Positions 9,220 to 24,164 of a DNA stretch of 64,000 bases are shown piece after piece. A program made the translations under genes and the position numbers. The stretch covers positions 744,001 to 808,000 of the forward strand of contig NZ_JABMEG010000001.1 in NCBI RefSeq assembly GCF_013179735.1, read 5' to 3'. The notes under the pieces are model-generated. The model was not told the origin of the DNA. It searched no databases and worked only from the letters and a program-made list of their open reading frames with translations. Origin of the DNA: Permianibacter fluminis. GTDB taxonomy: Bacteria > Pseudomonadota > Gammaproteobacteria > Enterobacterales > Permianibacteraceae. Every line of letters starts with the position of its first letter. Position 1 is the first letter of the stretch.

Positions 9220-12200
9220 ATGCGCTGGTCGTCGTTGTTCTCGCCCTTTCTCCTCATTTTCCAAGCCATTGTCTGGTTGCTTCAATTTTGCTGGCTCACG
9301 CTGTCGCGGATTGCGGCGGCGCTGTTTGGCAGCGTCAGCTGGCAGCGGCCGGCCTGGTTCGCGCCGGCAGCTGATGCCATCAGCGACGCCTGGTTTTGGT
9401 GCAGAAGCCGGCCCCGGCAAATGGCCTTGGCAGTGGGCTTGTTTGCGGCAGTCTTTATCGGCGGCTGGCAACTCTGGGACTGGTACCAACATCGACCGAA
9501 GCCGGTGACCATCGGTTACCAGGTGGACGCGCCGTATCTGACCTACTTCGCTGACGAGCAATGGCACATCGATGATGTGCTGATCAATTTTGACGATTCG
9601 GTCGCGCCGCTGGAGCAGATCGACAAGACGGTCAGTCAAGGTCTCACGTTGTCACCAAAAGTCGACGGAGAATGGCGCTGGGTAACGGACCGGCAGCTGC
9701 GCTTTGTGCCGAAAGCGGACTGGCCCATCGACCAGGAATATGAAATTCAATTCGCCAAAACCGGCTTGTTGGCTGCCAATGTCTTGCTCAGCGAGTATGA
9801 GACGCACTTTCATACCAAGCCGTTCCGCGCAGAATTGCAAAACAGCGAGTTCTATCAGGACCCGGTCGACCCGCAACTGAAGAAAATGGTTGCTACATTC
9901 AGCTTCAGTCATCCGGTTGATACGACGTCGTTTGAAAAGCGACTGGAGCTGAAGCTGGCGGATGGACTCAAATTCCTGAATAGCAATCAGCCCGAGCTTA
10001 CCGTCACTTATGACAAAGAGAAGCTGCATGCTTATGTGCATACAGCTGCACTGTCCATACCACGGGAAGACTTGGCACTCCGGTTGCTGCTTGCAAAAGG
10101 GGTCGCTGCAGAGCGCGGTGGCAACGCGACGGAAGATCCGCTCGAAACGCGCGTGATGGTGCCCGGACGCGGGTCGTTGCGATTCAACAATTTTGACATG
10201 GCGATTGTCGACAACGAGCGCTTTGAACCGATACAGCTATTGAATTTTGCCAGCTCGGCACCGGTTGCCGAAAATGCGCTGACCGGCAAAATCAAGGCTT
10301 GGTTGTTGCCGGAGTTTCCTGACAACTACAACGGCAATCGCAACAGTCCTTATCGCTGGAGTCAAAGCGAAGTCACTGAGGCTATTCTAAAAAAATCGCA
10401 AACATTGCCACTGAGCTATCAGACTGGCGAGCTCGAACATAACGAACAACATGGCATGACCTTTTCAGCACCGGTGGGCCGGATGGTGTACGTGCTCGTT
10501 CCGGAAGGGGTACAGGCTTTTGGTGGCTATGAAGCGATCAAGCCAACCGCCCATCTGTTCCAGGTGGAGCGCTATCCGACGGTGCTGAAGCTGATGTCGG
10601 AAGGCTCGTTACTGACAGCCGCGGGCGCTAAAAAAATCGCCTATGTCTCACGAGGCCTGGGTGCAGTTCGCTATGAAATTGGCCGGTTGTTGCCGAATCA
10701 GCTGCATCACATGATTGCCGAACACCACAATGATTACGCCCGGCCCTATATCGAAGATTATCGCTTTGATCGGCTGGTGGAACGGTTTGCAGACGTTCAG
10801 CCGGTACCGGGTAACGACCCGACCAAGGCGCATATTCAGAGCATCGATCTCGACAAATACCTCTACACCAAAGAGGGTCGCAAGCGCGGCATTTTCGTGC
10901 TGCGTATTCGGCAGGCCGAAAAAGGTGAAGACCCCAATCGGGAAACTTATGAAGGCGGCGGCGATGGCCGCTTGATCGTCGTTACCGATCTGGGTGTTGT
11001 GGCGAAACGGGTGATGAACGGCAATTACGAGTTGTTCGTCATGTCGATAGCTACCGGTCGACCGGTGGAAGGTGCCCGCGTCGATTTGGTTGGGACCAAT
11101 GGTCAGCCGGTGGTCAGTGACACCACCGACAGCAGCGGTCATGCCAGTATTGCCATGCAGGAACGTTGGCGCCGGGAGAAGACGCCGCTGATGTTTGTGG
11201 TCACCAAAGAGGACGACACGTCATTCCTGCCGCTCAATCGCTACGATCGCCAACTGGATTTTTCCCGCTTTGATATCGGAGGCATCGAGAACGCGTCGTC
11301 CGGCCAGCAGTTGTCCGCTTATGCCTTCACCGACCGCAATCTTTATCGACCGGGAGAAACGGCGCACCTGATGTACGTGGTACGAACCGCAGATTGGCAG
11401 GGAGATCTGACCGGCATGCCGGTGGAGATCGATGTCATAGACCCGCGTGGCTTGCTGGTCCAGCGCAGCCGCATGGCACTGTCGCGCGCTGGATTCGAGG
11501 GCCTCGATTTCGTCTCTCGTGACAGCTCTCTGACCGGCGAATATCAGTTCAATATTTCTTTGATACGCGACCAGAATCGTCGCGATCGTATTGGTGGTGC
11601 CAACTTCACGTTGCGGGAATTTGAACCGGACCGGCTGAAAGTGCACGCCACCTTGGCGCCGCAATCGGTTGATGGTTGGTTGAAGCCCGAGCAGGTGCAG
11701 GCGGCAGTTCAGGTCATGCATTTGTTTGGCAATCCTGCCGGTGGCGCCCGTGTTGATGCCGAATTGACGCTTAGCGGGGGCATCAGCAGTTTCAGCAAAT
11801 ATCCGGACTACGAATTTCGTGATCCGGCCAAGCCACTGCAAGCGCCGGTGACAGAAACACTGACTTCGGCCACCACCGACGACAAGGGCGAAGCAAGTTT
11901 TGATCTGAATCTGAAACGTTTCGACAAAGCCAGTTATCGTCTGCATCTGCTGACACGGGCGTTTGAGCCGGGTTCGGGCCGCAGCGTCAATGCTCAGGCC
12001 AGTGTGCTGGTGTCATCGGCTTCCTATTTGGTTGGAGTGAAAGCCGATGGTGCGCTGAACTACATCAGTCGTGGCAGCGAGCGCAATTCGCATTGGTTGG
12101 CCATTGACCAGAGTTTGCAAGCCACCGCTGCCAGTGAGCTGGTTCTGGAATGGGTTGAGCGGCGTTATGTCTCGGTGCTGGCCAAGCAGGACAACGGCAC

Positions 12201-15144
12201 CTACCGCTACGTTTCACGGCTGAAGGAAACCATCCGCGACAGCAAACCGAGCAAGCTTGGCAAAGAGGGCTTGAAGCTCGCGTTGGCAACGGATCAGCCG
12301 GGCGATTTCAGTTATGTGCTGCGCAACGGTGCCGGTGAAACGGTCGCCCGACTCGACTATTCGGTCAGTGGCGCCGCCAATCTGAGTCGCTCGCTGGAGC
12401 GCAATGCCGAACTGCAGCTGTCATTGAACAAGACCGAATACGAGCCGGGCGAAACGATTGAACTCAATATTCGGGCGCCCTATACCGGTGCCGGTCTGAT
12501 CACCATTGAGCGCGACAAGGTGTTGGCACATCAATGGTTCCAGGCCAGTACCAGCAGTTCCGTGCAGCGCATTACGGTGCCGAAAGATCTCGAAGGCACC
12601 GCCTATCTCAACGTCCAGTTTGTCCGCGACATGGCGTCCGATGAGGTCTATACCAGCCCGCTCTCCTACGGTGTCGTGCCCTTCACGGTCAATTTGGCCG
12701 CACGTCGGCAAACGGCGAACCTGACGGTGCCGAAGCGGGTCAAGCCGGGTGAAACGATCACGTTTCAGTTGGCGACGGGTGAGCCGGCGCGGGCTGCGGT
12801 GATCGCGGTCGATGAAGGTATTTTGCAAGTCGCCAAGTTCCAGACCCCTGATCCGCTTGGTTTCTTCTTCCAGAAGCGCCGGCTACAGGTTCAGACCAGT
12901 CAGATTCTGGATTTGATCCTGCCGGAGTTTGAGCGTCTGATGCAGGCGGCAGCGGCCGGTGGTGACGCCGAAGAGCTGTTGCGCCAGCAGCTCAATCCGT
13001 TCAAAAAGAAACGCCAGCCGCCGGTTGCCTGGTGGTCCGGGGTTCGCGATGTTGCTGCGGGTGACAACAGCTTTGATTACACGGTCCCGGATTCCTTCAA
13101 CGGCAAGCTGAGGGTTTATACCGTTATCGCGACGGCCAGCAAGGTGGCGGTTTATGAGGATGGAACCGAAGTTCAAGGCGACCTGATCCTGAATCCGAAC
13201 GTGCCGATGGCCGCTGCACCTGGCGATGAGCTGGTCGTTACGCTCGGCGTATACAACAACCTGAAAGGAAAAGGTCAGCAAGCGATCAAGGTGCGTGCGG
13301 TTACCGACAAGGGCCTCAGCGTACTGGGCGAAGCCAACGTCACGCTCAACATCGGTGAAGGTCAGGAGCAAGTGGCGGAATACCGGGTCAAGCTGACCGA
13401 AACACTCGGCTCGGCGGCGATCCGGTTTGAAGCGGAGTCGGGAGACGCACGCGCGAAAATCACCGACAGCATCAGCGTGCGACCGGCCACTCCGTACCGC
13501 ACGGTACTCCGGACCGGCAGTTTTGATGATGACAAGGCCAGCGTGGCCGTAACGCGCGATCTGTTCAGTGAGTTCCGTGACGTCAATGCCGGCTTGGCGC
13601 CCTCGCCGCTCATCTGGGCTCAGGGTCTGCGCGCTTACCTTGCCGGCTATCCGTATTCCTGTACCGAACAAATTACCAGCCAGGCCATTCCGGCGCTGAT
13701 CCTGAAGCGTTATCCGGAGCTGGGTGAAATCAGCGGCGGCGGTGATATCGATTCGGCATTGCGGACCCTGCGTTCACGGCAGAACGATGCCGGTGGTTTT
13801 GGCATGTGGGCGGCCAACCCCGTGGTTGATGAGTACGCCAGTCTGCATGTCAGTCAGTTCCTGATCGAAGCCAAGGACCGGGGTGAAGAGGTGCCGGACG
13901 ACATGCTGCGCAATGCCATGTCGTTTGTGCAGCATCTCAGCGGCAAGACCAGCAGTGGTCTCTATGGTGCGCGGCAACGTGCATACGGCATTTACTTGTT
14001 GGCCCGCCAAGGGATTAATCCGGCCGCGCAAATCAGCGCACTCAAATCGGATCTGAATGAACGCTACAAGGACCAATGGCCGCATGACCTGACTGCGGCT
14101 TACCTCGCTGCGTCGTACCGGTTGCTGAAACAGGATGAGCTGGCCTGGCGACTGATGAAAGAGGTGCCATGGCAAACCACCAGCGAATGGAAGGCGGGTG
14201 ATACCGTTTACTATGATCCGTTGGTTCACGACGCGGTGCATTTGCATTTGCTGGCACGACACTTTCCGGAACGGCTGAATACCGTACCGGACAATCTTGG
14301 CGATGCCTTGGGCAAGCAGTTGACCGATCAGCGTTTCCATTCGCTGTCTGCCGGTCTGCTGCTGCTGGCGCTGGATCAGTATCATGTCGCCAGTACGGCC
14401 CAGATCGGTGTGCTATCGATGGCGGAGATCGACAAGGCCGGCAAGAGCAAGGTGTTGCCCCTGAAGAGCGGTTCGTTGGCGCGTGTGCTGATCGCTCCGG
14501 AAGCGAAGTCATTGCAGCTCAATCGCAGCGGCAAAGGTCGCGCATTCTATGTCTTGGCGGAAACCGGGTTTGATCGGGTCAGTCCCGAGCCCATCAGCAA
14601 AGGCCTCGAAGTGCAGCGCGACTTTGTCGACGCCAACGACAAAATACTGACCAGCGTGAAAGTTGGCGACGAATTCTTTGTCCGGTTGCGGCTGCGTGGG
14701 ACCGCGTACGACGAGTCGCCACAAATCGCCTTTGTTGATTTGCTGCCGGGTGGTCTGGAGCCGGTGCCGGTGGTTCGGGCATCGCAAGCACAGCAAACGT
14801 ATGGTTGTGCCGACGAGAGTTGCGATGAGGCTGCAGATCAGGACAATGGCTATGAAGGTGACTATGAGGGTGATGGCGACAGTGACTATTCCGACAGTGT
14901 CTGGGAGTCTCCGCTAGGTGTGACGGCCGATCGCGGTTGGCGCCTGCAATACGCGGATGTTCGTGACGACCGGGTAGTGCTGTACGGCAACCTGAGTGGT
15001 CGCGACGTCATCACCATGAAGTATCGGGTTCGGGCGGTGAATCCTGGAACCTTCCAGGTGCCGGCGCCGTATGCCGAGGGCATGTATGACCGCGCGATGT
15101 ATGCAATCGGCAAGGTCAGCAAGCTTGAGATTGTAAAACCGTGA
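9220..15144 (+). CDS. Bacterial alpha-2-macroglobulin with thioester, membrane-anchored
   Basis: 1974 residues, longer than the about 1650 of E. coli YfhM. Bacterial macroglobulins sit in the periplasm and trap proteases that cleave their bait region, then bind covalently through a Cys-Gln thioester. Seen: MG-type domains including the typical RNLYRPGE motif near 706-713, an A2M-type segment starting near 1268, and the thioester motif CTEQ at Cys1481-Gln1484. A helical thioester domain and receptor-like C-terminal part follow. The N-terminus has two hydrophobic segments (about 8-36 and 67-88) and no lipobox, unlike the lipoprotein form. An acidic insert with two Cys lies at about 1863-1897. 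pbpC follows 58 nt later, the well-known pairing for repair of breached peptidoglycan. Confidence 0.93.
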   Translation: MRWSSLFSPFLLIFQAIVWLLQFCWLTLSRIAAALFGSVSWQRPAWFAPAADAISDAWFWCRSRPRQMALAVGLFAAVFIGGWQLWDWYQHRPKPVTIGYQVDAPYLTYFADEQWHIDDVLINFDDSVAPLEQIDKTVSQGLTLSPKVDGEWRWVTDRQLRFVPKADWPIDQEYEIQFAKTGLLAANVLLSEYETHFHTKPFRAELQNSEFYQDPVDPQLKKMVATFSFSHPVDTTSFEKRLELKLADGLKFLNSNQPELTVTYDKEKLHAYVHTAALSIPREDLALRLLLAKGVAAERGGNATEDPLETRVMVPGRGSLRFNNFDMAIVDNERFEPIQLLNFASSAPVAENALTGKIKAWLLPEFPDNYNGNRNSPYRWSQSEVTEAILKKSQTLPLSYQTGELEHNEQHGMTFSAPVGRMVYVLVPEGVQAFGGYEAIKPTAHLFQVERYPTVLKLMSEGSLLTAAGAKKIAYVSRGLGAVRYEIGRLLPNQLHHMIAEHHNDYARPYIEDYRFDRLVERFADVQPVPGNDPTKAHIQSIDLDKYLYTKEGRKRGIFVLRIRQAEKGEDPNRETYEGGGDGRLIVVTDLGVVAKRVMNGNYELFVMSIATGRPVEGARVDLVGTNGQPVVSDTTDSSGHASIAMQERWRREKTPLMFVVTKEDDTSFLPLNRYDRQLDFSRFDIGGIENASSGQQLSAYAFTDRNLYRPGETAHLMYVVRTADWQGDLTGMPVEIDVIDPRGLLVQRSRMALSRAGFEGLDFVSRDSSLTGEYQFNISLIRDQNRRDRIGGANFTLREFEPDRLKVHATLAPQSVDGWLKPEQVQAAVQVMHLFGNPAGGARVDAELTLSGGISSFSKYPDYEFRDPAKPLQAPVTETLTSATTDDKGEASFDLNLKRFDKASYRLHLLTRAFEPGSGRSVNAQASVLVSSASYLVGVKADGALNYISRGSERNSHWLAIDQSLQATAASELVLEWVERRYVSVLAKQDNGTYRYVSRLKETIRDSKPSKLGKEGLKLALATDQPGDFSYVLRNGAGETVARLDYSVSGAANLSRSLERNAELQLSLNKTEYEPGETIELNIRAPYTGAGLITIERDKVLAHQWFQASTSSSVQRITVPKDLEGTAYLNVQFVRDMASDEVYTSPLSYGVVPFTVNLAARRQTANLTVPKRVKPGETITFQLATGEPARAAVIAVDEGILQVAKFQTPDPLGFFFQKRRLQVQTSQILDLILPEFERLMQAAAAGGDAEELLRQQLNPFKKKRQPPVAWWSGVRDVAAGDNSFDYTVPDSFNGKLRVYTVIATASKVAVYEDGTEVQGDLILNPNVPMAAAPGDELVVTLGVYNNLKGKGQQAIKVRAVTDKGLSVLGEANVTLNIGEGQEQVAEYRVKLTETLGSAAIRFEAESGDARAKITDSISVRPATPYRTVLRTGSFDDDKASVAVTRDLFSEFRDVNAGLAPSPLIWAQGLRAYLAGYPYSCTEQITSQAIPALILKRYPELGEISGGGDIDSALRTLRSRQNDAGGFGMWAANPVVDEYASLHVSQFLIEAKDRGEEVPDDMLRNAMSFVQHLSGKTSSGLYGARQRAYGIYLLARQGINPAAQISALKSDLNERYKDQWPHDLTAAYLAASYRLLKQDELAWRLMKEVPWQTTSEWKAGDTVYYDPLVHDAVHLHLLARHFPERLNTVPDNLGDALGKQLTDQRFHSLSAGLLLLALDQYHVASTAQIGVLSMAEIDKAGKSKVLPLKSGSLARVLIAPEAKSLQLNRSGKGRAFYVLAETGFDRVSPEPISKGLEVQRDFVDANDKILTSVKVGDEFFVRLRLRGTAYDESPQIAFVDLLPGGLEPVPVVRASQAQQTYGCADESCDEAADQDNGYEGDYEGDGDSDYSDSVWESPLGVTADRGWRLQYADVRDDRVVLYGNLSGRDVITMKYRVRAVNPGTFQVPAPYAEGMYDRAMYAIGKVSKLEIVKP

Positions 15145-15153
15145 TCCACTCAC

Positions 15154-15191
15154 TCGATACGGCCAGCGACTCCAATCGCTGGCCGTATCGA
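15154..15191. other. Perfect 16-bp inverted repeat between the macroglobulin gene and pbpC
   Basis: Arms at 15154-15169 and 15176-15191 are exact reverse complements with the 6-nt loop CTCCAA. The hairpin starts 9 nt after the macroglobulin stop and ends 11 nt before the pbpC GTG. No T-run follows on either strand, so it is not a standard intrinsic terminator. It may slow transcription, protect the upstream mRNA 3' end, or mask the pbpC ribosome-binding region. Confidence 0.75.
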
Positions 15192-15202
15192 ATTTCGCGT
15201 CC

Positions 15203-17545
15203 GTGTCGACCGTGATCCTTAAACTTCCGCAACGACCACGCTCGATCCGTGATCTGATCTGGCGGGCATCTGGCTGGTTGCTACTGCTGCTGCTGGTACT
15301 GATCGCACTGCGACTCTATCCCAAGCCATCGCTGGCCAGTTTTGCCCCACAATCCAAGACTATCCTGGCGGCAGATGGCTCGCTGTTGCGACTGACCCTG
15401 GCCAGCGATCAGCAATTTCGGTTGTGGACAGCACGGGAGCAAATCGCGCCGATCTTTGTCGAGGCGATGTTGCTGCAAGAGGACCAATGGTTTTATTGGC
15501 ATCCCGGCGTGAATCCCATCAGCCTGTTGCGCGGTGCCTGGTCGACCTATCTCAGCGATGTCCGTCAGGGTGGCTCGACGTTGACGATGCAGTTGGCGCG
15601 ATTGCTCTATCGGTTGGATACCAAGTCACCGCTTGGCAAGCTCAAACAGAGCGCATTGGCCATCTGGCTGGAGGCGCGCTATTCCAAAAAAGAGTTGCTG
15701 GAGGCCTACCTCAACTACGCACCGTTCGGTGGCAACATTCAGGGCATTGGCGCCGCCAGTTTGATTTACTTCAACAAGCAGCCGGCGGAATTGACCATTG
15801 CCGAAGCGATGACCTTGGCAGTGATTCCCCAGCAGCCCAATCTGCGACCGGCGCGCGGTCAGTCGCTGGTCGGTGCGCGCGATCGCTTGCTGGCGCGCTG
15901 GCGACATCAACATCCAGAAAACAGGCAAAGTCTGCCAGACAGCGACTTTGACATACTTGGCCGCGACCGCCAGAAACTGCCATTTCTTGCGCCGCATCTG
16001 GTTGAGCAATTGCTGCCGCAAGCAGCGCCCGGCGAACGCCTTCTCAGCACACTGGATTTGCCACTGCAACGCCTGTTGGAACGGCAGATCCGAAGCCACC
16101 TGGCCCAGCAACGCAGTCGTGGCATCCGCAATGCTGTCGCCATGCTGGTCGATTGGCGGGACCAAAGTGTGAAAGCCATGGTTGGCTCAGCTGACTACTT
16201 TGACGATGACATCGCCGGTCAGGTAAACGGCGCGCTGGCCAAGCGCTCACCTGGTTCGACACTGAAGCCATTCATCTATGCGCTGGCGCTGGATCAGGGC
16301 GTCATACATCCGCTGTCCATGCTCAAAGATGCGCCCACCGCGTTCGGTCCATTCACGCCGGAAAATTTCGATGGTCGTTTTGCCGGACCGCTGTCGGCGC
16401 GCGATGCGCTCAACCGCAGTCGAAACATTCCGGCGGTATGGCTCGCGACCCAAATCAAGCAACCTGACTTGTATGAACTGCTGCGAGCAGCTGGCGTTTC
16501 GGCGTTGCAGCCGCGTTCGCACTATGGGCTGGCGCTGGTGCTCGGTGGTGGTGAAGTCACCATGGAAGAATTGGCCCAGCTCTATGTGATGCTGGCCAAT
16601 GGCGGCGAGTTGAAGCCGCTACGCTATCGGCGTGACGCCGGCATCGCTCCGGGTACGCGCTTGATTTCGCCGGAGGCGAGTTGGTTGACACTGGATATGA
16701 TGAGTGCCAATACCCGTCCGGATGCGGCAGCAAAAAAAAATGCCCGGCAATGGTTTACAGCGTGGAAGACCGGCACGTCGTGGGGCTTTCGTGATGCCTG
16801 GACTGCTGGCGTCGTTGGACCGTACGTGTTGGTGGTATGGCTGGGCAACTTCGATGGCGAAGGCAATCCCGCGCTGGTCGGCATAGAAACTGCTGCACCG
16901 CTGTGGTTACGGATTGCGGATGCACTACCGCTGCTCAGCAATCAGCCAGAACCAGTGCGGCCACTGCCACCTGCATTGACCAAGGTCGATATCTGTTCGG
17001 CATCCGGTGATTTGCCGAATCGCTGGTGCCCGAAAATTGAATCCGGTTGGTTCATTCCCGGAAAGTCACCGATTCGCGTCAGCAACTTGCATCGGCCGGT
17101 ATGGATTGATCCGCGCACCGGCAAAGCGATCTGTCCACCTTATGGCGCCAATGCCAAAGAAGAGGTGTTCGAATTCTGGCCCTCTGATCTGGCGCATCTG
17201 TTCCGCCAGGCAGGACTGCCCCGACGACCGCCGCCAACCCCTGCGGATTGTCATGGCGACCTGCCCATTGCTGCCAATGACATGCCACGCATTACCTCGC
17301 CTTACATCGGTTTGCGTTACACCTTGCGGCAATCGCACCCGGAAGAAATGCTGGCACTCAATGCGGCTACGGCAGCGGACGCAAAAACCGTGTTCTGGTT
17401 TATCAACAATGATTTTGTTGGCCGCAGCAACCCCGGCACCGCGCTCGGCTGGCGCCCGACGGCGACCGGCCATTATCAAATCACCGCGACTGACGACCGA
17501 GGCCGAAGCAGCAGTCGGGCGATTGATGCCGACTTGGTGCCGTGA
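15203..17545 (+). CDS. pbpC: Penicillin-binding protein 1C
   Basis: 780 residues, the usual length. Order of parts: a membrane anchor (about 24-42), a glycosyltransferase (GT51) domain with the EDQWFYWHPGV and GGSTLTMQLAR motifs, then a transpeptidase with Ser352-x-x-Lys355, SRN and KTGT. A C-terminal BiPBP_C-type domain covers about the last 90 residues. The enzyme polymerises and cross-links peptidoglycan in the periplasm. The GTG at 15203 is used; a GTG at 15212 is an alternative, and no strong ribosome site marks either. It follows the macroglobulin gene as in E. coli yfhM-pbpC, separated here by a hairpin. Confidence 0.95.
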   Translation: MSTVILKLPQRPRSIRDLIWRASGWLLLLLLVLIALRLYPKPSLASFAPQSKTILAADGSLLRLTLASDQQFRLWTAREQIAPIFVEAMLLQEDQWFYWHPGVNPISLLRGAWSTYLSDVRQGGSTLTMQLARLLYRLDTKSPLGKLKQSALAIWLEARYSKKELLEAYLNYAPFGGNIQGIGAASLIYFNKQPAELTIAEAMTLAVIPQQPNLRPARGQSLVGARDRLLARWRHQHPENRQSLPDSDFDILGRDRQKLPFLAPHLVEQLLPQAAPGERLLSTLDLPLQRLLERQIRSHLAQQRSRGIRNAVAMLVDWRDQSVKAMVGSADYFDDDIAGQVNGALAKRSPGSTLKPFIYALALDQGVIHPLSMLKDAPTAFGPFTPENFDGRFAGPLSARDALNRSRNIPAVWLATQIKQPDLYELLRAAGVSALQPRSHYGLALVLGGGEVTMEELAQLYVMLANGGELKPLRYRRDAGIAPGTRLISPEASWLTLDMMSANTRPDAAAKKNARQWFTAWKTGTSWGFRDAWTAGVVGPYVLVVWLGNFDGEGNPALVGIETAAPLWLRIADALPLLSNQPEPVRPLPPALTKVDICSASGDLPNRWCPKIESGWFIPGKSPIRVSNLHRPVWIDPRTGKAICPPYGANAKEEVFEFWPSDLAHLFRQAGLPRRPPPTPADCHGDLPIAANDMPRITSPYIGLRYTLRQSHPEEMLALNAATAADAKTVFWFINNDFVGRSNPGTALGWRPTATGHYQITATDDRGRSSSRAIDADLVP

Positions 17546-17625: not shown

Positions 17626-20166
17626 TTATTTGCGCCGCAGTTTGCGCACACCGGCCAGCAGCAGCAAGGCGCCGACAGCGAAACTACCGCCACCGCCTCC
17701 ACCACCGCCACCGTTACCGTTACCGCCAGAACTCGACGCGCTGACGGTGATGCTGTCCGTTACCACCTTGGCGATGCCGCGGCTATCAGTCACCGTCAAC
17801 GACACGGTGTAGGTACCGGCGCTCGCGTAGGTGTGGCTGGCTGCTAGGGTGGTTGCGCTGCTGCTGTCACCAAAGCTCCAAAGATAGGTCAGCGCACCGA
17901 CACCACCGCCGGCGGTACCGGTAAAGTTGACCGCCAGCTTGTCGATACTGCGGCTGATGCCGGCCGTCAGTTCGGCGGCGGCCGGATCGGCGTTCAGCAC
18001 GATGCGGGCACTGCTGCTGTCAGCGGCTTGTTCAGTAACGGTCATCACGAGCTTGTGTTCCGGCAGGACCAGACCCGATTGCGGTGAGCCAGCGCTGCTG
18101 TAGTCGTAGCGATCATCGAAACCGAAGATAGCGGCCAGATTGTTGTCACCCGATTTCACCATCTGGTTCATCCGGCGGAACGCAGCGTCGCGGATCTGGG
18201 TGCTGGTATCGGCGTTTGCACTGCCAGATTTGACCAACGTTTGGTCGGCATCGACAACGCCGAGGAAGCCATGGCCCGGATGCCGGCTGACATTGTTGTC
18301 GCCGTAGTTCGGATCGGCATACCACATCACGACACCGTGGTCGTAGCCCTCATCTTTGAGGCCGGCATCAAGATCACGATGGCTGCGCAGTTGGACGTAA
18401 TAATTTGGCTGGGCGCCTTCATAGTTGGCACCAACGCGAGCAAAACCATCGAACGTGATCGCGCCGTTTACCGCCTCTGCGTCGGCGGTGAAAGCGGTGC
18501 TGCCGCCACCCGTAACCAGCAGATCATCGATGGCGATACCGAAATCGCCGGCCGACTGGTCGGTGACGTACTCGACGGTGACGATGACGGTCTGGCCCTT
18601 GTAGGCAGCCAGCGGGAAAACCTGCTGCTGCCAGGCAGAGCTGTGATCGCCCGTCAGGTAATACTGAATGCCGCTGTGCTCCGGGTTTACCGTATTGACG
18701 GTATCAGTACCGGCGATAGCGGAGCCGTTGATCAGCACACGGGCATAGTCGTAATCGGGTTCGATATTCCACTTGGCGTAAAACGCCAGCTGCGCATCAT
18801 TGCTGTTCGGCACGGTGACCGAGAATGACATGCTGTTATCAAGCATGTCGCCTTTGCCGGAATGAAACTGGAATGCGCCAGCATGTGGTGCAAACAACGT
18901 CTGCTGCGGTCCCGGCAGCATGATTTTAACCTGGTTCACACTACTGCTGTGGTTGATGGCATCGACCAGATCAATGCTGCTGAGACTGCTTTGCAGAGTG
19001 CTCAAATCAAGTACGGTCTGATTGATCCAGTTGCCGCCATAGGTTTCTTGAAAATAATCGCGAGCGTAGGGACTGAATCCGCTCGGTTTCGACCCAGGCA
19101 GTCCGCCAGCCCAACTGCCGCCAGACATAATGGACCAGAACCCAATTGGCTCGCCAAAGTTGTCGATATCGGTATTCGGGTCGGTTTCATATTCGTCCGG
19201 CAAACCGAGATCGTGGCCGAATTCGTGCGCGACAACGCCGGTTGCAGCATCGATCGGTTGAATGGTGTAGCCATACATCTTGTACGCGCCGCTGGTACCG
19301 GTAATGGTTACCGGCGCATCAGCGACATAGTAGCGATGGGACCAGATTGCATCGTCATCCAGCACGCCGCCACCGGCCTCTTCGCCGACGCTGGAATGGA
19401 ATACCTGGATGTGATCGATGATGCCATCCGGCTCATCCAGAATACCGTTATCGTTAAGGTCGTACTGATCCTCAACGTCGTAATCGGCCAGATTGATGCT
19501 GTTGGCAGCGACGGCTTTGTTGACAGCTTCCATCACCAGCTGCTGGGCATGGGCGTCATCATTACTGGGGCCGACATTCCCGCCATAGTATGCGGCATTG
19601 TTATCGGCAGTCACCCAGCCAAACACGTCACCGGTATAGAGCAGCGAATCACCCGATTCACTTTTGTAATACTGATGTGCTGTCTGCAGCGTCTGACCAC
19701 TTGGGCCGGCGTAACCGGTGGTGGAGAACATCAGGTTGCGGTAGTGTGCGACATTGTAGTCGGCATAAAACATGTCAGTATCAGTGCGACTCAGGCCGTT
19801 GTTGTTGTAACGGCGATCCGGAAAATCGATCAGCACCGCCAGCACCTTGACCGTCTTCTCGCCGGCCAGCTTTTGCTTGCTGTTAACGTTTGTGTTGCGT
19901 TTGGCGATGGGGGCCGGCAACAGGTCGGCATGCTTACTGGCCATGGCGATATATTTCTGCAGCAGTTGCTGCTTCTGTTCGGCGCTGGCATTGGCTGGCA
20001 GTTCGCCGCGCTTCTCTGCCCAATACAGGATGCGATCTTTGTTTACCAGCGCCGGATCTTTCGGCGTGGTGTTGTGGTGCAGCGGCTTTGCGGCGACGGT
20101 GCCAGTGGCCAGTGTCATGGCGCTGGCGACAGCCAGTGCCAACAGCGAAGGCTTGTTCAGTTTCAT
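17626..20166 (-). CDS. Secreted M6-family metalloprotease (immune inhibitor A-like) with PKD domain and GlyGly-CTERM tail
   Basis: 846 residues. A signal peptide (about 1-27, ending TVAA) is followed by a propeptide-like segment and the M6 catalytic domain with the zinc motif HEFGH at His314-His318 and the downstream GLPDEY. A beta-rich domain, a PKD domain (YLWSFGDSSS ... YTVSLTVTD, about 740-805), a poly-Gly stretch, a short hydrophobic helix and RKLRRK complete the protein. The end is a textbook GlyGly-CTERM signal, expected to be cut by a rhombosortase after type II secretion. The ATG at 20166 is chosen because it starts the signal peptide; it lies 5 nt after the upstream lipoprotein stop, so the two form an operon. 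Confidence 0.92.
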   Translation of the reverse strand: MKLNKPSLLALAVASAMTLATGTVAAKPLHHNTTPKDPALVNKDRILYWAEKRGELPANASAEQKQQLLQKYIAMASKHADLLPAPIAKRNTNVNSKQKLAGEKTVKVLAVLIDFPDRRYNNNGLSRTDTDMFYADYNVAHYRNLMFSTTGYAGPSGQTLQTAHQYYKSESGDSLLYTGDVFGWVTADNNAAYYGGNVGPSNDDAHAQQLVMEAVNKAVAANSINLADYDVEDQYDLNDNGILDEPDGIIDHIQVFHSSVGEEAGGGVLDDDAIWSHRYYVADAPVTITGTSGAYKMYGYTIQPIDAATGVVAHEFGHDLGLPDEYETDPNTDIDNFGEPIGFWSIMSGGSWAGGLPGSKPSGFSPYARDYFQETYGGNWINQTVLDLSTLQSSLSSIDLVDAINHSSSVNQVKIMLPGPQQTLFAPHAGAFQFHSGKGDMLDNSMSFSVTVPNSNDAQLAFYAKWNIEPDYDYARVLINGSAIAGTDTVNTVNPEHSGIQYYLTGDHSSAWQQQVFPLAAYKGQTVIVTVEYVTDQSAGDFGIAIDDLLVTGGGSTAFTADAEAVNGAITFDGFARVGANYEGAQPNYYVQLRSHRDLDAGLKDEGYDHGVVMWYADPNYGDNNVSRHPGHGFLGVVDADQTLVKSGSANADTSTQIRDAAFRRMNQMVKSGDNNLAAIFGFDDRYDYSSAGSPQSGLVLPEHKLVMTVTEQAADSSSARIVLNADPAAAELTAGISRSIDKLAVNFTGTAGGGVGALTYLWSFGDSSSATTLAASHTYASAGTYTVSLTVTDSRGIAKVVTDSITVSASSSGGNGNGGGGGGGGGSFAVGALLLLAGVRKLRRK

Positions 20167-20171
20167 GAGGT

Positions 20172-20498
20172 TCACTTCTTCTCTTTGCAGTTCAGATAGG
20201 TTTGGTTTTTCTGGCGAATGTATTCGCGAATGACTTGTTCTTTTTGTTCCCGGCTCATCTCGGCCGTGATCAGGCCGTCTTTGCGCAGCATCGGCTCCAG
20301 CGCCCAGATATCGCGGACCGGTGGTGGCGCGCTGCATTTGATGGCTGGTGTCGTTGGCGTGCCAGATTTTGGCGGTGTGGCTAGCGAGTCCGTCGCGGCT
20401 GGTTCGGCGGCGCATGCCATCAGGCTGCTGGCAAGCAGGGCCGGAAGCAAGGCACGGACAAGCGGCGTACGGGGTAACACGTCGGACAACGAGGTCAT
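20172..20498 (-). CDS. Small lipoprotein encoded upstream of the M6 protease
   Basis: 108 residues. A signal peptide with lipobox LMAC (Cys near 28) predicts a lipoprotein; a Thr/Pro-rich linker and a short charged helical domain follow. Its C-terminal part (RKDGLITAEMSREQKEQ then REYIRQ) resembles the segment just after the signal peptide of the M6 protease (EKRGELPANASAEQKQQ then QKYIAM). This suggests a detached propeptide-like helper or inhibitor, which is inference. The ATG at 20498 has GAGGGC 4 nt upstream. I recognise no named family. Confidence 0.75.
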   Translation of the reverse strand: MTSLSDVLPRTPLVRALLPALLASSLMACAAEPAATDSLATPPKSGTPTTPAIKCSAPPPVRDIWALEPMLRKDGLITAEMSREQKEQVIREYIRQKNQTYLNCKEKK

Positions 20499-20696
20499 GG
20501 AGCCCTCCTCGGGTGTTAATTGAGCGCTGGAGCCTATCACCGACCTTACGGCCATTCCGTCTCGGTTTGTAGCCTTGCCAACGCTTCGATACATATTTGT
20601 ACAGGCTTGCGCCTGCCGATGGGCCTGATCTCAACGCAGTTTGTCCCCTCGGCGCTGTGCGGAATTCGACAAGTGAGCGATCCGGCTGCCCATTTT

Positions 20697-20725
20697 TTGA
20701 CCAGCGCCCGGTCCGCCGGTACAAT
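20697..20725 (+). promoter_or_regulatory. Sigma70 promoter of mnmG
   Basis: -35 TTGACC (20697-20702) and -10 TACAAT (20720-20725) with the ideal 17-nt spacer, 33 nt before the mnmG ATG. Each hexamer differs from consensus at one position. Confidence 0.8.
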
Positions 20726-20758
20726 GCGCGCCCCGTTCTGGTCCTTGCCGCTAAACCC

Positions 20759-22648
20759 ATGATTTTTCCGCAGGAATTTGCCGTTATCGTCGTCGGTGGT
20801 GGCCATGCCGGCACCGAAGCCGCCTTGGCTGCGGCCCGGATGGGCGTGCCGACGCTGTTGCTGAGCCATAGCATCGAGACGCTGGGTGCGATGAGCTGCA
20901 ACCCGGCCATCGGCGGCATCGGCAAGGGCCATCTGGTCAAGGAAATCGATGCCCTTGGCGGCATCATGGCGCGTGGCGCCGATCGCGCCGGCATCCAGTT
21001 CCGGACCCTGAATGCCTCGAAAGGCCCCGCCGTGCGGGCGACCCGCGCCCAGGCCGACCGCCTGCTATATAAGGCGTTCATCCGCACGACGCTGGAAAAC
21101 CAGCCGAACCTGTGGCTGTTCCAGCAGCCGGTTGAGGACCTGTTGCTGGACGGTGATCAGGTCACTGGTGTCGTGACCAAGATGGGTCTGACCTTCAAAG
21201 CCCGTCAGGTTGTGCTGACGGTCGGTACCTTCCTGCAGGGGCTGATTCACATCGGCGAACAGAATTATGCCGGCGGTCGCGCCGGCGATGCGCCGTCGAT
21301 TGGTCTGGCCAACCGACTGCGCGAGCTGCCGTTTCGTTATGGCCGGTTGAAAACCGGCACGCCGCCGCGCATCGATGGCCGCTCGATCAATTACGCCGGT
21401 CTGCAAGAGCAGCCGGGCGACAACCCGACCCCGGTGTTTTCCTTCCTCGGCTCACGGGCTGACCAGCCGCCCCAGATCAGCTGCTGGATTACCCACACCA
21501 CCGAAAAAACTGCGGACGTGATCCGCAAGAACTTGCACCGCTCGCCGATGTACAGCGGCAAGATCGAAGGCATCGGGCCGCGTTATTGTCCGAGCATCGA
21601 AGACAAGATTGTCCGTTTTGCCGACAAGGAAACGCACCAGATCTTTATCGAGCCGGAAGGCCTGACCACCAACGAGGTCTACCCAAACGGTATCTCGACT
21701 TCGCTGCCGTTTGATGTGCAAATGGAAATCGTCCATTCGATCACCGGTTTCGAAAACGCCTACATCCTGCGGCCCGGCTATGCCATCGAATACGATTACT
21801 TCGACCCGCGCGAACTGAAGACCACGCTGGAAACCAAGCACGTGTCGGGGCTTTTTTTTGCCGGCCAGATCAACGGCACCACCGGTTATGAAGAAGCGGC
21901 CGCACAAGGTTTGCTGGCCGGTGTCAACGCGGCGCTGCGCGCGCAAGAGAAGGCGGCGTGGGCGCCGCGCCGTGACGAAGCCTATATTGGCGTGTTGGTT
22001 GACGATCTCACCACCAACGGCACCCAAGAGCCGTACCGCATGTTCACTTCGCGTGCCGAGTATCGCTTGCTGTTGCGTGAAGACAACGCTGATCTGCGGC
22101 TGACCGAAAAAGGCCGCGAGCTGGGACTGATTCCGGATGCGCACTGGGATGCCTATTGCCGCAAGCGCGATGCGATCAGCGCCGAGCATGACCGGCTGCA
22201 CCGCACGTTTGTCCAGCCGAATTCCGAACAAGCCGCGCATCTGAATCAGCATTTCGAAAAGCCGTTGACCCGGGAATACCGGCTGGAAGAGCTGTTGCGC
22301 CGGCCGGAACTCGATTACGCCAGGTTGACCGCAGCGCCGGATCTGGCGGTGGCAGGGATGGACCCGCTGGTCGCCGAGCAAGTGGAAATCCAGGTCAAAT
22401 ACGCCGGTTATATCAGTCGGCAAGCGGAAGAAATCGAAAGCGCCCAGCGCTACGAAAACACCAAGCTGCCACTGACCCTGGATTACAGCACCGTAACCGG
22501 TCTTTCGGCGGAAGTGATGCAGAAGCTGAATCGCATCAAACCGGAAACGGTTGGCCAGGCCTCGCGCATTGCCGGCATCACGCCGGCAGCGATTTCGCTG
22601 CTTCTGGTGCATCTGAAAAAAGGCAATTTGCTGAAGGCATCGGCCTGA
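20759..22648 (+). CDS. mnmG: tRNA uridine-5-carboxymethylaminomethyl(34) synthesis enzyme MnmG
   Basis: 629 residues, identical in length to E. coli MnmG. It is the FAD/NADH partner of MnmE in U34 modification. Seen: the N-terminal dinucleotide-binding motif [12 protein letters not shown], the conserved [19 protein letters not shown] region, the [11 protein letters not shown] segment and the C-terminal helical domain that docks MnmE. The ATG at 20759 was chosen because the protein then begins [15 protein letters not shown] as expected and a strong promoter lies just upstream. The gene precedes the rsmG-parAB-atp block as usual, though a minus-strand DUF3016 gene intervenes. Confidence 0.97.
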
Positions 22649-22768: not shown

Positions 22769-23290
22769 TCATTGCTCGGTCGGAAATTCCTTTTTCAGCC
22801 AATCCTCGAGCAAGCCCTTGTCATGCTCCAGCGCATCACGGCCGATGTTGCCGCTCTCCATCATGAAACCCAGATTGCGCAAATCGCGATTGCCTTCCTT
22901 GAGCACGCTGCCATCGGCACCGAACAACTGAAAGTGCAGCTTCATCCGCGGCGGATACATATCCTTGACGATGCGGATGTCTTGCATCGCCGGGGCGTTC
23001 CAGGGTTCGAAAGCGCCAGCCAGATCGATGTCATTGATGGCGATCTCCAGTCGCTGACCGGCCGGTAGTTGTCGGGTCGCGCGCTTCTCCAGCCACTTCT
23101 TCAACTCGCTGAGATTGGCGTTCTTCTCCGGCGCGGTTTTGAATTGCCGCTCCTTGACGTCAGTGAATTTTTCCGGCGCCTGAAAAACCACCTTGACCGG
23201 CCCGGCACTGCTGTCGGTTTCGGCAACGGCCGCTGCGGCAAAGGCACTGAGCAAGCCGGCGGTAATAACAACGCGTGAACGGGATTTCAT
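22769..23290 (-). CDS. DUF3016 domain-containing exported protein
   Basis: 173 residues. A signal peptide (about 1-23, ending AVA|ETD) is followed by a compact domain beginning VKVVFQAPEKFTDV, the characteristic opening of DUF3016 proteins, and containing the DLRNLGFM segment near the end. Family role is unknown; it is probably periplasmic. The ATG at 23290 is supported by GGAGGT 7 nt upstream (23298-23303 on the complement). It is convergent with mnmG and shares its terminator. Confidence 0.8.
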   Translation of the reverse strand: MKSRSRVVITAGLLSAFAAAAVAETDSSAGPVKVVFQAPEKFTDVKERQFKTAPEKNANLSELKKWLEKRATRQLPAGQRLEIAINDIDLAGAFEPWNAPAMQDIRIVKDMYPPRMKLHFQLFGADGSVLKEGNRDLRNLGFMMESGNIGRDALEHDKGLLEDWLKKEFPTEQ

Positions 23291-23353
23291 GACGAGACCT
23301 CCGGTTTCCAGACCAGACCAACACAAGGTCAACACAACGCCTATACATCAGGG

Positions 23354-23395: not shown

Positions 23396-23558
23396 CAACC
23401 ATACGCCTAAGCCTTAGTCCTGTAACGATCAGGACGGTTCCTGTTGGTTGGTCGTACCGCAGTGGCGCAAAACAGCCCTCGGCAAACCCTGACTCAGGCT
23501 GGCACATTGCCCTGCCCTGCTGGACAATGCGCGCTGCCCTGACAACTTGTTGCCGAAC

Positions 23559-24164
23559 ATGACGGTCGACCAAAAACTGCATCAGGCCTTGAGCCTCTGG
23601 TCCTTGCCGAGCACGGCCGCCGCGCCGCTGCAGCATTTGCTCAATGAATTGCTGAAGTGGAACAGCGCCTTCAACCTGACCGCGATTCGTGATCCGGATG
23701 AAGCCTTGACGCTGCACATCCTCGATTCGTTGACGTTGCTGCCCTACGTCACCGGACCACGGCTGCTGGATGTCGGCACCGGTCCCGGTTTTCCGGCGCT
23801 GCCGCTGGCGATTCTGCGGCCGGATGTGCAGATCACCGCGCTCGATTCCAACGGCAAGAAAATCCGTTTCATCCGGCAGATGGCGCATGAGCTGAAGCTC
23901 GACAATATCGAGCCGGTACAAGCGCGGGTCGAACAGCATCAGGGCCAGTATCAACAGATCACCAGCCGGGCCTTTGCCGAGCTCAAGCTGTTTCTCGACC
24001 TGACCGGACACCTGCTGGCGCCCGGCGGCGAGTGGCTGGCGATGAAAAGCCAGAGCGCTGCCGCGGAAATCGCCCAGTTGCCGGCTGGGCTGCAGGCCGA
24101 AGTGCTGCCGCTGCAGGTGCCGGGCCTGCAAGCCGAGCGCTGCCTTGTCCGCGTTCGTCGTTAA
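23559..24164 (+). CDS. rsmG: 16S rRNA (guanine527-N7)-methyltransferase RsmG
   Basis: 201 residues, near the E. coli length of 207. It methylates G527 in the decoding region of 16S rRNA with S-adenosylmethionine. Seen: N-terminal NLTAIRDPDEALTLHILDSL, the SAM-binding motif LLDVGTGPGFPALPLAI, and the TSRAFAEL segment. The ATG at 23559 (MTVDQKLHQAL) is preferred over a TTG at 23547, but no strong ribosome site marks either. The gene is followed 18 nt later by an unrecognised gene and not directly by parA. Confidence 0.95.
   Translation: MTVDQKLHQALSLWSLPSTAAAPLQHLLNELLKWNSAFNLTAIRDPDEALTLHILDSLTLLPYVTGPRLLDVGTGPGFPALPLAILRPDVQITALDSNGKKIRFIRQMAHELKLDNIEPVQARVEQHQGQYQQITSRAFAELKLFLDLTGHLLAPGGEWLAMKSQSAAAEIAQLPAGLQAEVLPLQVPGLQAERCLVRVRR

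What the first reader, a model, noticed from the sequence alone, without database searches (positions are those of the whole stretch)
17626..20498. Small lipoprotein shares a segment with the propeptide region of the M6 protease it precedes
The lipoprotein's end (RKDGLITAEMSREQKEQ...YI) aligns by eye with the M6 protease just after its signal peptide (EKRGELPANASAEQKQQ...YI). The genes are 5 nt apart in one operon. A separate, lipid-anchored copy of a propeptide could act as a periplasmic chaperone or inhibitor for a secreted protease before type II export, which would be an uncommon arrangement for M6 enzymes.
Basis: partly seen in the sequence, partly recalled or inferred. Interest (0 to 1): 0.6.

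Follow-up and report, generated by a model that had tools for sequence, protein, structure and literature searches.

The report
Stand-alone copy of a protease propeptide
A tiny lipid-anchored protein made from the gene just ahead of a secreted protein-digesting enzyme is a real evolutionary copy of the removable "safety" segment of that same enzyme; the same arrangement recurs in many marine bacteria and, apparently independently, in Bacillus relatives, so it probably helps fold, restrain or hold the enzyme, though that has not been tested.

Summary
Observation confirmed and strengthened. The 108-aa lipoprotein (20172-20498, -) and the propeptide of the M6 protease it precedes (17626-20166, -) share a ~42-residue helical-hairpin module: hhalign probability 96.5, E 1e-9, 45 ungapped columns, against at most 2.0 in 100 column shuffles. 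The module is the propeptide domain solved in PrtV (5abk) and the InhA2 zymogen (4yu5). Of 87 M6 loci in the order, 35 have the lipoprotein directly upstream (all within 30 nt, 24 overlapping) and 15 (Vibrio-like) a soluble secreted version; no orphan was found. A Bacillota family carries such a lipoprotein near inhA in 12 of 15 genomes, apparently of separate origin. The genes are under purifying selection.

Most likely role: a membrane-held, trans-acting propeptide (chaperone, latency or retention factor) for its own M6 enzyme. Homology and linkage are shown; binding and function are inferred. A putative chaperone next to V. cholerae PrtV was listed in 2016 from adjacency alone; a 2026 paper did not know whether that gene (vca0224) is translated. 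New variant of a known kind.

The parts
20172..20498 (-). Small lipoprotein (108 aa), stand-alone propeptide-like protein
   Evidence: ORF and translation; no Pfam or NCBIfam family; 28-member family alignment A3
20412..20498 (-). Signal sequence and lipobox (LMAC), lipid Cys29; +2 residue Ala, so predicted for the outer membrane under the Asp+2 rule
   Evidence: Sequence; +2 residue is Asp in only 1 of 35 relatives
20337..20411 (-). Flexible Ala/Pro/Thr-rich linker between lipid and module
   Evidence: AF2 pLDDT 54-62; linker 21-44 residues in relatives
20175..20336 (-). Propeptide-like helical hairpin (helices 64-73 and 83-106), bracketed by invariant Cys55 and Cys104 (probable disulfide)
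   Evidence: AF2 pLDDT 86-98; both Cys present in 36 of 36; C55 and C104 invariant in A3; hhalign to M6 propeptide
17626..20166 (-). M6 (InhA/PrtV-like) zinc metalloprotease, 846 aa
   Evidence: PF05547 E 3.7e-98, InhA MAM E 1.9e-33, VEG E 7.6e-27, PKD_4 E 7.2e-16; AF2 model against 4yu5 Z 43.9, 630 residues, 2.4 A
19930..20055 (-). Propeptide module of the protease, residues 38-79 (helices at 43-52 and 62-76), homologous to the lipoprotein domain
   Evidence: hhalign; profile hits PDB 5abk E 1.4e-16 and 4yu5 E 1.3e-4; AF2 helices
19024..19866 (-). M6 catalytic domain; HEFGH zinc motif at 19213-19227
   Evidence: PF05547 residues 101-381; sequence
17743..18969 (-). MAM, VEG and PKD domains of the protease
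   Evidence: Pfam
17629..17724 (-). GlyGly-CTERM sorting tail (GGNGGGGGGGGGSFAVGALLLLAGVRKLRRK)
   Evidence: Sequence; two rhombosortase genes over the cut-off and a T2SS secretin in the same genome

Best explanation
The lipoprotein is a stand-alone, membrane-anchored version of the M6 protease's own propeptide module, made in step with the protease by translational coupling. Most likely it acts in trans on its partner: the disulfide-stapled helical hairpin docks on the M6 zymogen or catalytic domain, at or near the site used by the cis propeptide, and holds the enzyme at the membrane in a folded, latent, export-ready state until it is delivered to the cell surface. Shown here: homology to the propeptide, gene linkage, purifying selection, lipobox, predicted hairpin fold, recurrence in other lineages. 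Inferred: physical binding to M6, the docking site, the disulfide, and the balance between folding help, latency and retention. I favour chaperone/latency over a classical active-site inhibitor, because the N-terminal element that (from memory of the InhA2 zymogen paper) blocks the zinc is not available in an acylated lipoprotein. The homology part of this statement I hold at about 0.97; the confidence below is for the mechanism.
For: Homology by profile comparison with shuffle control. The module is the solved PrtV/InhA propeptide domain, and the protease model superposes on the InhA2 zymogen from the propeptide on. In PrtV this region is removed: mature PrtV starts at residue 106 (PMC2613228). 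Linkage: 35 of 35 lipoprotein-M6 pairs within 30 nt, 24 overlapping, median -1 nt. No orphan lipoprotein: every strong hit in 395 genomes is beside an M6 gene, or in one case (L050) at a contig end. Soluble counterparts beside Vibrio-like M6 genes. Bacillota: 12 of 15 genomes of a family have a lipoprotein with the module upstream of inhA, 269-298 nt away in 11 of them; these modules are about 48% identical on average to the propeptide of the neighbouring InhA and 26% to proteobacterial lipoproteins. Median dN/dS 0.08 (lipoproteins) and 0.16 (soluble type). Precedents: SUB1-ProM, a stand-alone propeptide-like inhibitor beside subtilase genes (PMC6993865); CpaB, a membrane chaperone needed for secretion of metallopeptidase CpaA (PMC4713064).
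Against: No binding, inhibition or secretion data exist here, and a complex could not be predicted with these tools. The lipoprotein module differs from the module of the protease it accompanies (26% identity in the window, 21% on average in its clade; the M6 YW and KRGE positions are replaced), so it may not use the same docking surface. 37 of 87 M6 loci have no detectable stand-alone copy, including M6 genes that keep the propeptide module, so the partner is dispensable in those lineages. Predicted outer-membrane sorting would place it away from the Sec exit, where a foldase such as Lif acts.
Confidence: 0.5

Rival explanations
1. Surface tether: the lipoprotein is a receptor that keeps the mature M6 protease at the cell envelope or in vesicles, by binding where the removed propeptide used to sit.
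For: Lipid anchor with a 21-44 residue flexible linker, and no Asp at +2 in 34 of 35. In the sampled order every complete M6 with a lipoprotein partner ends in a GlyGly-CTERM tail (33 of 33), while all 15 with a soluble partner lack it; GlyGly-CTERM proteins end up on the cell surface (PMC6219818). Fits Bacillota, where the lipoprotein faces the wall.
Against: GlyGly-CTERM already anchors the protease, so a tether is redundant. The tail and the lipoprotein follow one M6 clade, so the match is not independent evidence. The Vibrio-like partner is soluble.
Confidence: 0.2
2. Classical propeptide-like inhibitor or self-protection protein: the domain binds active M6 and blocks it, protecting the producing cell.
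For: Stand-alone propeptides in other protease families are potent inhibitors (SUB1-ProM PMC6993865; I29 proteins, PMC4089206). Always beside the protease, never an orphan.
Against: From memory of the InhA2 zymogen work, latency comes from the propeptide N-terminus binding zinc; the lipoprotein N-terminus is acylated and distant. The two invariant Cys probably pair, so a free-thiol cysteine switch is unlikely. 18 GlyGly-CTERM M6 genes do without it.
Confidence: 0.15
3. The module binds a third partner (a maturation protease, secretion machinery or another propeptide), so the lipoprotein is a competitor or adaptor rather than a ligand of M6.
For: Divergence of the lipoprotein module from its own M6 module in the gammaproteobacterial clade.
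Against: Bacillota and gammaproteobacteria share no obvious export machinery beyond Sec, yet both have it. No orphan lipoproteins away from M6.
Confidence: 0.1
4. Evolutionary by-product: a duplicated propeptide fragment without a selected role.
For: Absent from many relatives; tandem duplication is a simple origin.
Against: dN/dS 0.03-0.33 over all three types, invariant lipid Cys, C55 and C104, maintained start/stop overlap.
Confidence: 0.02

Closest known systems
PrtV / InhA M6 protease propeptide (PDB 5abk, 4yu5)
   Same: Same sequence module: profile E 1.4e-16 and 1.3e-4; helix-loop-helix predicted in both
   Different: There it is a cis N-terminal part of the protease, removed on maturation; here a separate lipoprotein with two bracketing cysteines
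vca0224 / A5E_A0255 beside prtV in Vibrio cholerae (PMC4713064 Table 1; PMC13250501)
   Same: Small gene just upstream of an M6 protease in one transcript; other Vibrio species' equivalents carry the module
   Different: Proposed as a putative T2SS chaperone from adjacency and a TM prediction only; propeptide homology not noted; a 2026 paper did not know whether it is translated. The V. cholerae sequence itself was not read here
CpaB and Lif/LipB membrane chaperones of T2SS substrates (PMC4713064)
   Same: Membrane-held dedicated partner encoded beside a secreted enzyme, 22 bp away for CpaB
   Different: N-terminal TM helix in the inner membrane; SRPBCC domain reported for CpaB; not derived from the enzyme's own propeptide
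SUB1-ProM and I29 propeptide-like inhibitors (PMC6993865, PMC4089206)
   Same: Stand-alone copies of a protease propeptide; SUB1-ProM is syntenic with its protease family
   Different: Eukaryotic, soluble, subtilisin or cathepsin proteases; shown inhibitors

Membership tests
M6 (InhA/PrtV) propeptide module | Sequence homology over the helix-loop-helix module | tested here: met
   hhalign prob 96.5, E 1e-9, shuffles at most 2.0
M6 (InhA/PrtV) propeptide module | Helical hairpin fold | tested here: met
   AF2 helices 64-73 and 83-106, pLDDT 86-98; propeptide helices in the M6 model. Prediction only
M6 (InhA/PrtV) propeptide module | Structural match of the lipoprotein domain to 5abk or 4yu5 | tested here: inconclusive
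   Foldseek and VIA returned no useful match for so short a hairpin
M6 (InhA/PrtV) propeptide module | Binds the M6 catalytic domain | not testable with these tools
   No complex prediction available; only the cis module is covered by the superposition with the zymogen 4yu5
Bacterial lipoprotein | Signal sequence with lipobox and conserved Cys | tested here: met
   C29 invariant in A3; lipobox context in 35 relatives
M6 peptidase family (the downstream gene) | M6 catalytic domain with HExxH motif | tested here: met
   PF05547 E 3.7e-98, 328.8 bits against cut-off 22; HEFGH at 19213-19227
Propeptide-like protease inhibitors | Stand-alone protein homologous to a protease propeptide | tested here: met
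Propeptide-like protease inhibitors | Measured inhibition of the cognate protease | not testable with these tools
   Needs purified protein
T2SS membrane chaperones (CpaB/Lif class) | Encoded adjacent to a probable T2SS substrate and held in the membrane | tested here: met
   5 nt gap, lipobox, T2SS secretin in the genome
T2SS membrane chaperones (CpaB/Lif class) | N-terminal transmembrane helix | tested here: not met
   A lipobox signal instead; not filed as a member
T2SS membrane chaperones (CpaB/Lif class) | Required for secretion of the partner | not testable with these tools
   Needs a deletion

The most novel reading that the evidence does not exclude
M6 proteases across two phyla repeatedly evolve a second, separately encoded and usually lipid-anchored copy of their propeptide that is needed to fold, keep latent or position the enzyme: a general two-part (cis plus trans) propeptide system not described before, with vca0224 of Vibrio cholerae as an unrecognised member.
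Probability: 0.4. Interest if true: 0.75.

Novelty: new variant of a known kind. Interest (0 to 1): 0.58.

Why it matters
PrtV/InhA proteases are studied secreted enzymes, and the small gene in front of prtV had no identified function; a 2026 paper states it is unknown whether vca0224 is translated (PMC13250501). The module homology, together with dN/dS of 0.16 across related Vibrio genes, turns that into a direct test with a predicted partner. If the trans copy acts on the enzyme, it would be a compact natural handle on M6 protease folding, latency or placement, in a form (lipid-anchored propeptide) that I have not found described in the papers I could search. The recurrence in Bacillota makes it a natural experiment on why a protease would need a second copy of its propeptide.

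Tried and rejected
Chance or composition (amphipathic helices, signal peptides): rejected by mature-only and column-shuffle controls. Curated families: Pfam and NCBIfam give nothing consistent for the lipoprotein family. Foldseek/VIA with the lipoprotein model: no useful match, as expected for a short hairpin. phmmer of the lipoprotein alone against PDB: only chance matches. Cysteine switch (C-x-x-P-P resembles the MMP motif): considered and disfavoured, because a second Cys is equally invariant and a disulfide is more likely. GlyGly-CTERM as an independent correlate of the lipoprotein: rejected as statistical evidence, since it is one clade. Double modules within one M6 N-terminus: none found among 152 checked. 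Wider class: no lipoprotein outside the order in a sample of 369 genomes. The order-level search scored at most 12 candidates per genome, so absences were rechecked on fetched M6 loci. The PrtV N-domain structure paper is not held and no held paper on the InhA2 zymogen was found; what I say of its latency mechanism is from memory. Promoter/terminator scan of the region: no better than shuffles.

Full report
WHAT IS THERE. On the minus strand, a 108-residue lipoprotein (20172-20498) is followed after 5 nt by an 846-residue M6 metalloprotease (17626-20166). The protease has the M6 catalytic domain, InhA-type MAM and VEG domains, a PKD domain and a GlyGly-CTERM tail. Its genome holds two rhombosortase genes above the curated cut-off and a type II secretin. 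The genome has one M6 gene by the Pfam search. The sampled genome of the same genus and the one of the same family have neither M6 nor lipoprotein.

IS THE SIMILARITY REAL. The pair alone is suggestive, and with signal peptides removed it exceeds 2000 of 2000 shuffles. Collected relatives decide it: the lipoprotein domain family (36 sequences) aligns with the M6 N-terminal region (88 sequences) over 45 columns without a gap, hhalign probability 96.5 and E 1e-9; 100 column-shuffled controls reach at most 2.0. The lipoprotein HMM places its best hit in the propeptide of 79 of 79 M6 frames that it hits.

WHAT THE MODULE IS. A profile of the M6 modules finds two solved structures: 5abk (E 1.4e-16), which I know as the N-terminal domain of V. 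cholerae PrtV, and 4yu5, the B. anthracis InhA2 zymogen (E 1.3e-4) (entry titles). In PrtV this region is removed, since the purified enzyme forms start at residue 106 (PMC2613228), so it is a true propeptide. AF2 gives lipoprotein residues 55-108 at pLDDT 86-98 as two helices, 64-73 and 83-106; the protease model has the matching helices and superposes on 4yu5 at Z 43.9, 2.4 A over 630 residues, with an aligned range that starts in the propeptide. The lipoprotein adds two cysteines, C55 and C104, that bracket the module in 36 of 36 relatives; a disulfide is the likely reading (inference).

LINKAGE. Of 87 M6 loci fetched from the order, 35 have the lipoprotein directly upstream, 15 (Vibrio-like) have a soluble secreted small protein with the module and different cysteine positions, and 37 have no detectable copy. 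All 35 gaps are within 30 nt, 24 are overlaps, median -1, which suggests translational coupling. Named examples of the lipoprotein type are Kangiella, Shewanella, Ferrimonas and Colwellia, and of the soluble type Vibrio, Photobacterium and Enterovibrio. Within one genus code (g7) some M6 genes sit directly after a marC-like gene and others have the lipoprotein in between. On the M6 tree the three states need 9 changes against 38 for shuffled labels, so the trait is inherited with some gains or losses. No strong lipoprotein hit lies away from an M6 gene; one is at a contig end. My note says 36 of 87; the correct count is 35 of 87 plus the window itself.

BACILLOTA. Three named Bacillota loci (L226-L228), and 12 of 15 genomes in the family of one of them, have a lipoprotein carrying the module upstream of inhA; the gap is 269-298 nt in 11 and longer in one. 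Another, Fictibacillus, has one downstream. Their modules are closest to InhA propeptides of their own group (47% on average, up to 60%) rather than to the proteobacterial lipoproteins (26%), which points to a separate origin. With modules this short, an old common origin is not strictly excluded.

SELECTION. Pairwise dN/dS over the module is 0.08 (lipoproteins, median of 24 pairs), 0.16 (soluble Vibrio type, median of 50 pairs) and 0.07-0.16 (Bacillota, 2 pairs). These are translated, constrained proteins.

HOW IT MOST LIKELY WORKS. A membrane-held, trans-acting propeptide for the partner enzyme is the best-supported reading, by homology, linkage, coupling and precedent (SUB1-ProM; CpaB). Whether it folds, restrains or holds the enzyme is open. 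Against a simple zinc-blocking inhibitor: the N-terminus is acylated and 21-44 residues from the module, whereas the InhA2 zymogen, from memory, uses its free propeptide N-terminus. Against a purely Sec-side foldase: 34 of 35 lack Asp at +2, so outer-membrane sorting is predicted under a rule that varies between species. Against a purely type II role: Bacillota. Co-export of the lipoprotein to the surface by the T2SS, as shown for some Acinetobacter lipoproteins (PMC12802150), is not excluded.

NOVELTY. Harding et al. listed the gene next to prtV in V. cholerae B33 (84 bp away, predicted TM 5-27) as a putative T2SS chaperone (PMC4713064 Table 1). A 2026 paper shows that prtV and cisR are transcribed from a promoter upstream of vca0224 and says that translation of vca0224 is unknown (PMC13250501). 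I did not read the V. cholerae sequence itself, so its membership is inferred from other Vibrio species. No paper in the held library, as searched, reports the propeptide homology, the lipid-anchored form or the Bacillota version; subscription literature was not searchable. Hence a new variant of a known kind.

Noticed in passing
window 9220-17545 (+): A bacterial alpha-2-macroglobulin gene and a PBP1C-type gene (a known pairing, from memory) lie convergent to the M6 protease; PrtV is reported to act on human alpha-2-macroglobulin (PMC2613228), so a protease trap beside a protease is curious but probably coincidence.
   Followed up: no
window 22769-23335 (-): A small secreted-looking protein gene of unknown function sits on the opposite strand between mnmG (20597-22648, +) and an rsmG-like gene (23547-24164, +), which are usually neighbours.
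   Followed up: no
G253, G301, G104, G088, G338, G017, G125, G147: Several genomes carry two M6 genes; in G253 and G301 the second M6 (L149, L151) has no detectable propeptide module and no stand-alone partner.
   Followed up: partly
L083-L090, L196, L197, L200: Aeromonas-type M6 proteases have a propeptide module resembling the lipoproteins (KVLEMLKKSGRI) but no stand-alone copy upstream.
   Followed up: partly
L068-L082, L180-L195: The soluble Vibrio-type proteins have a cysteine directly after helix 1 (GVIC) and one near the C-terminus, so the cysteine pairing differs from the lipoprotein type.
   Followed up: no
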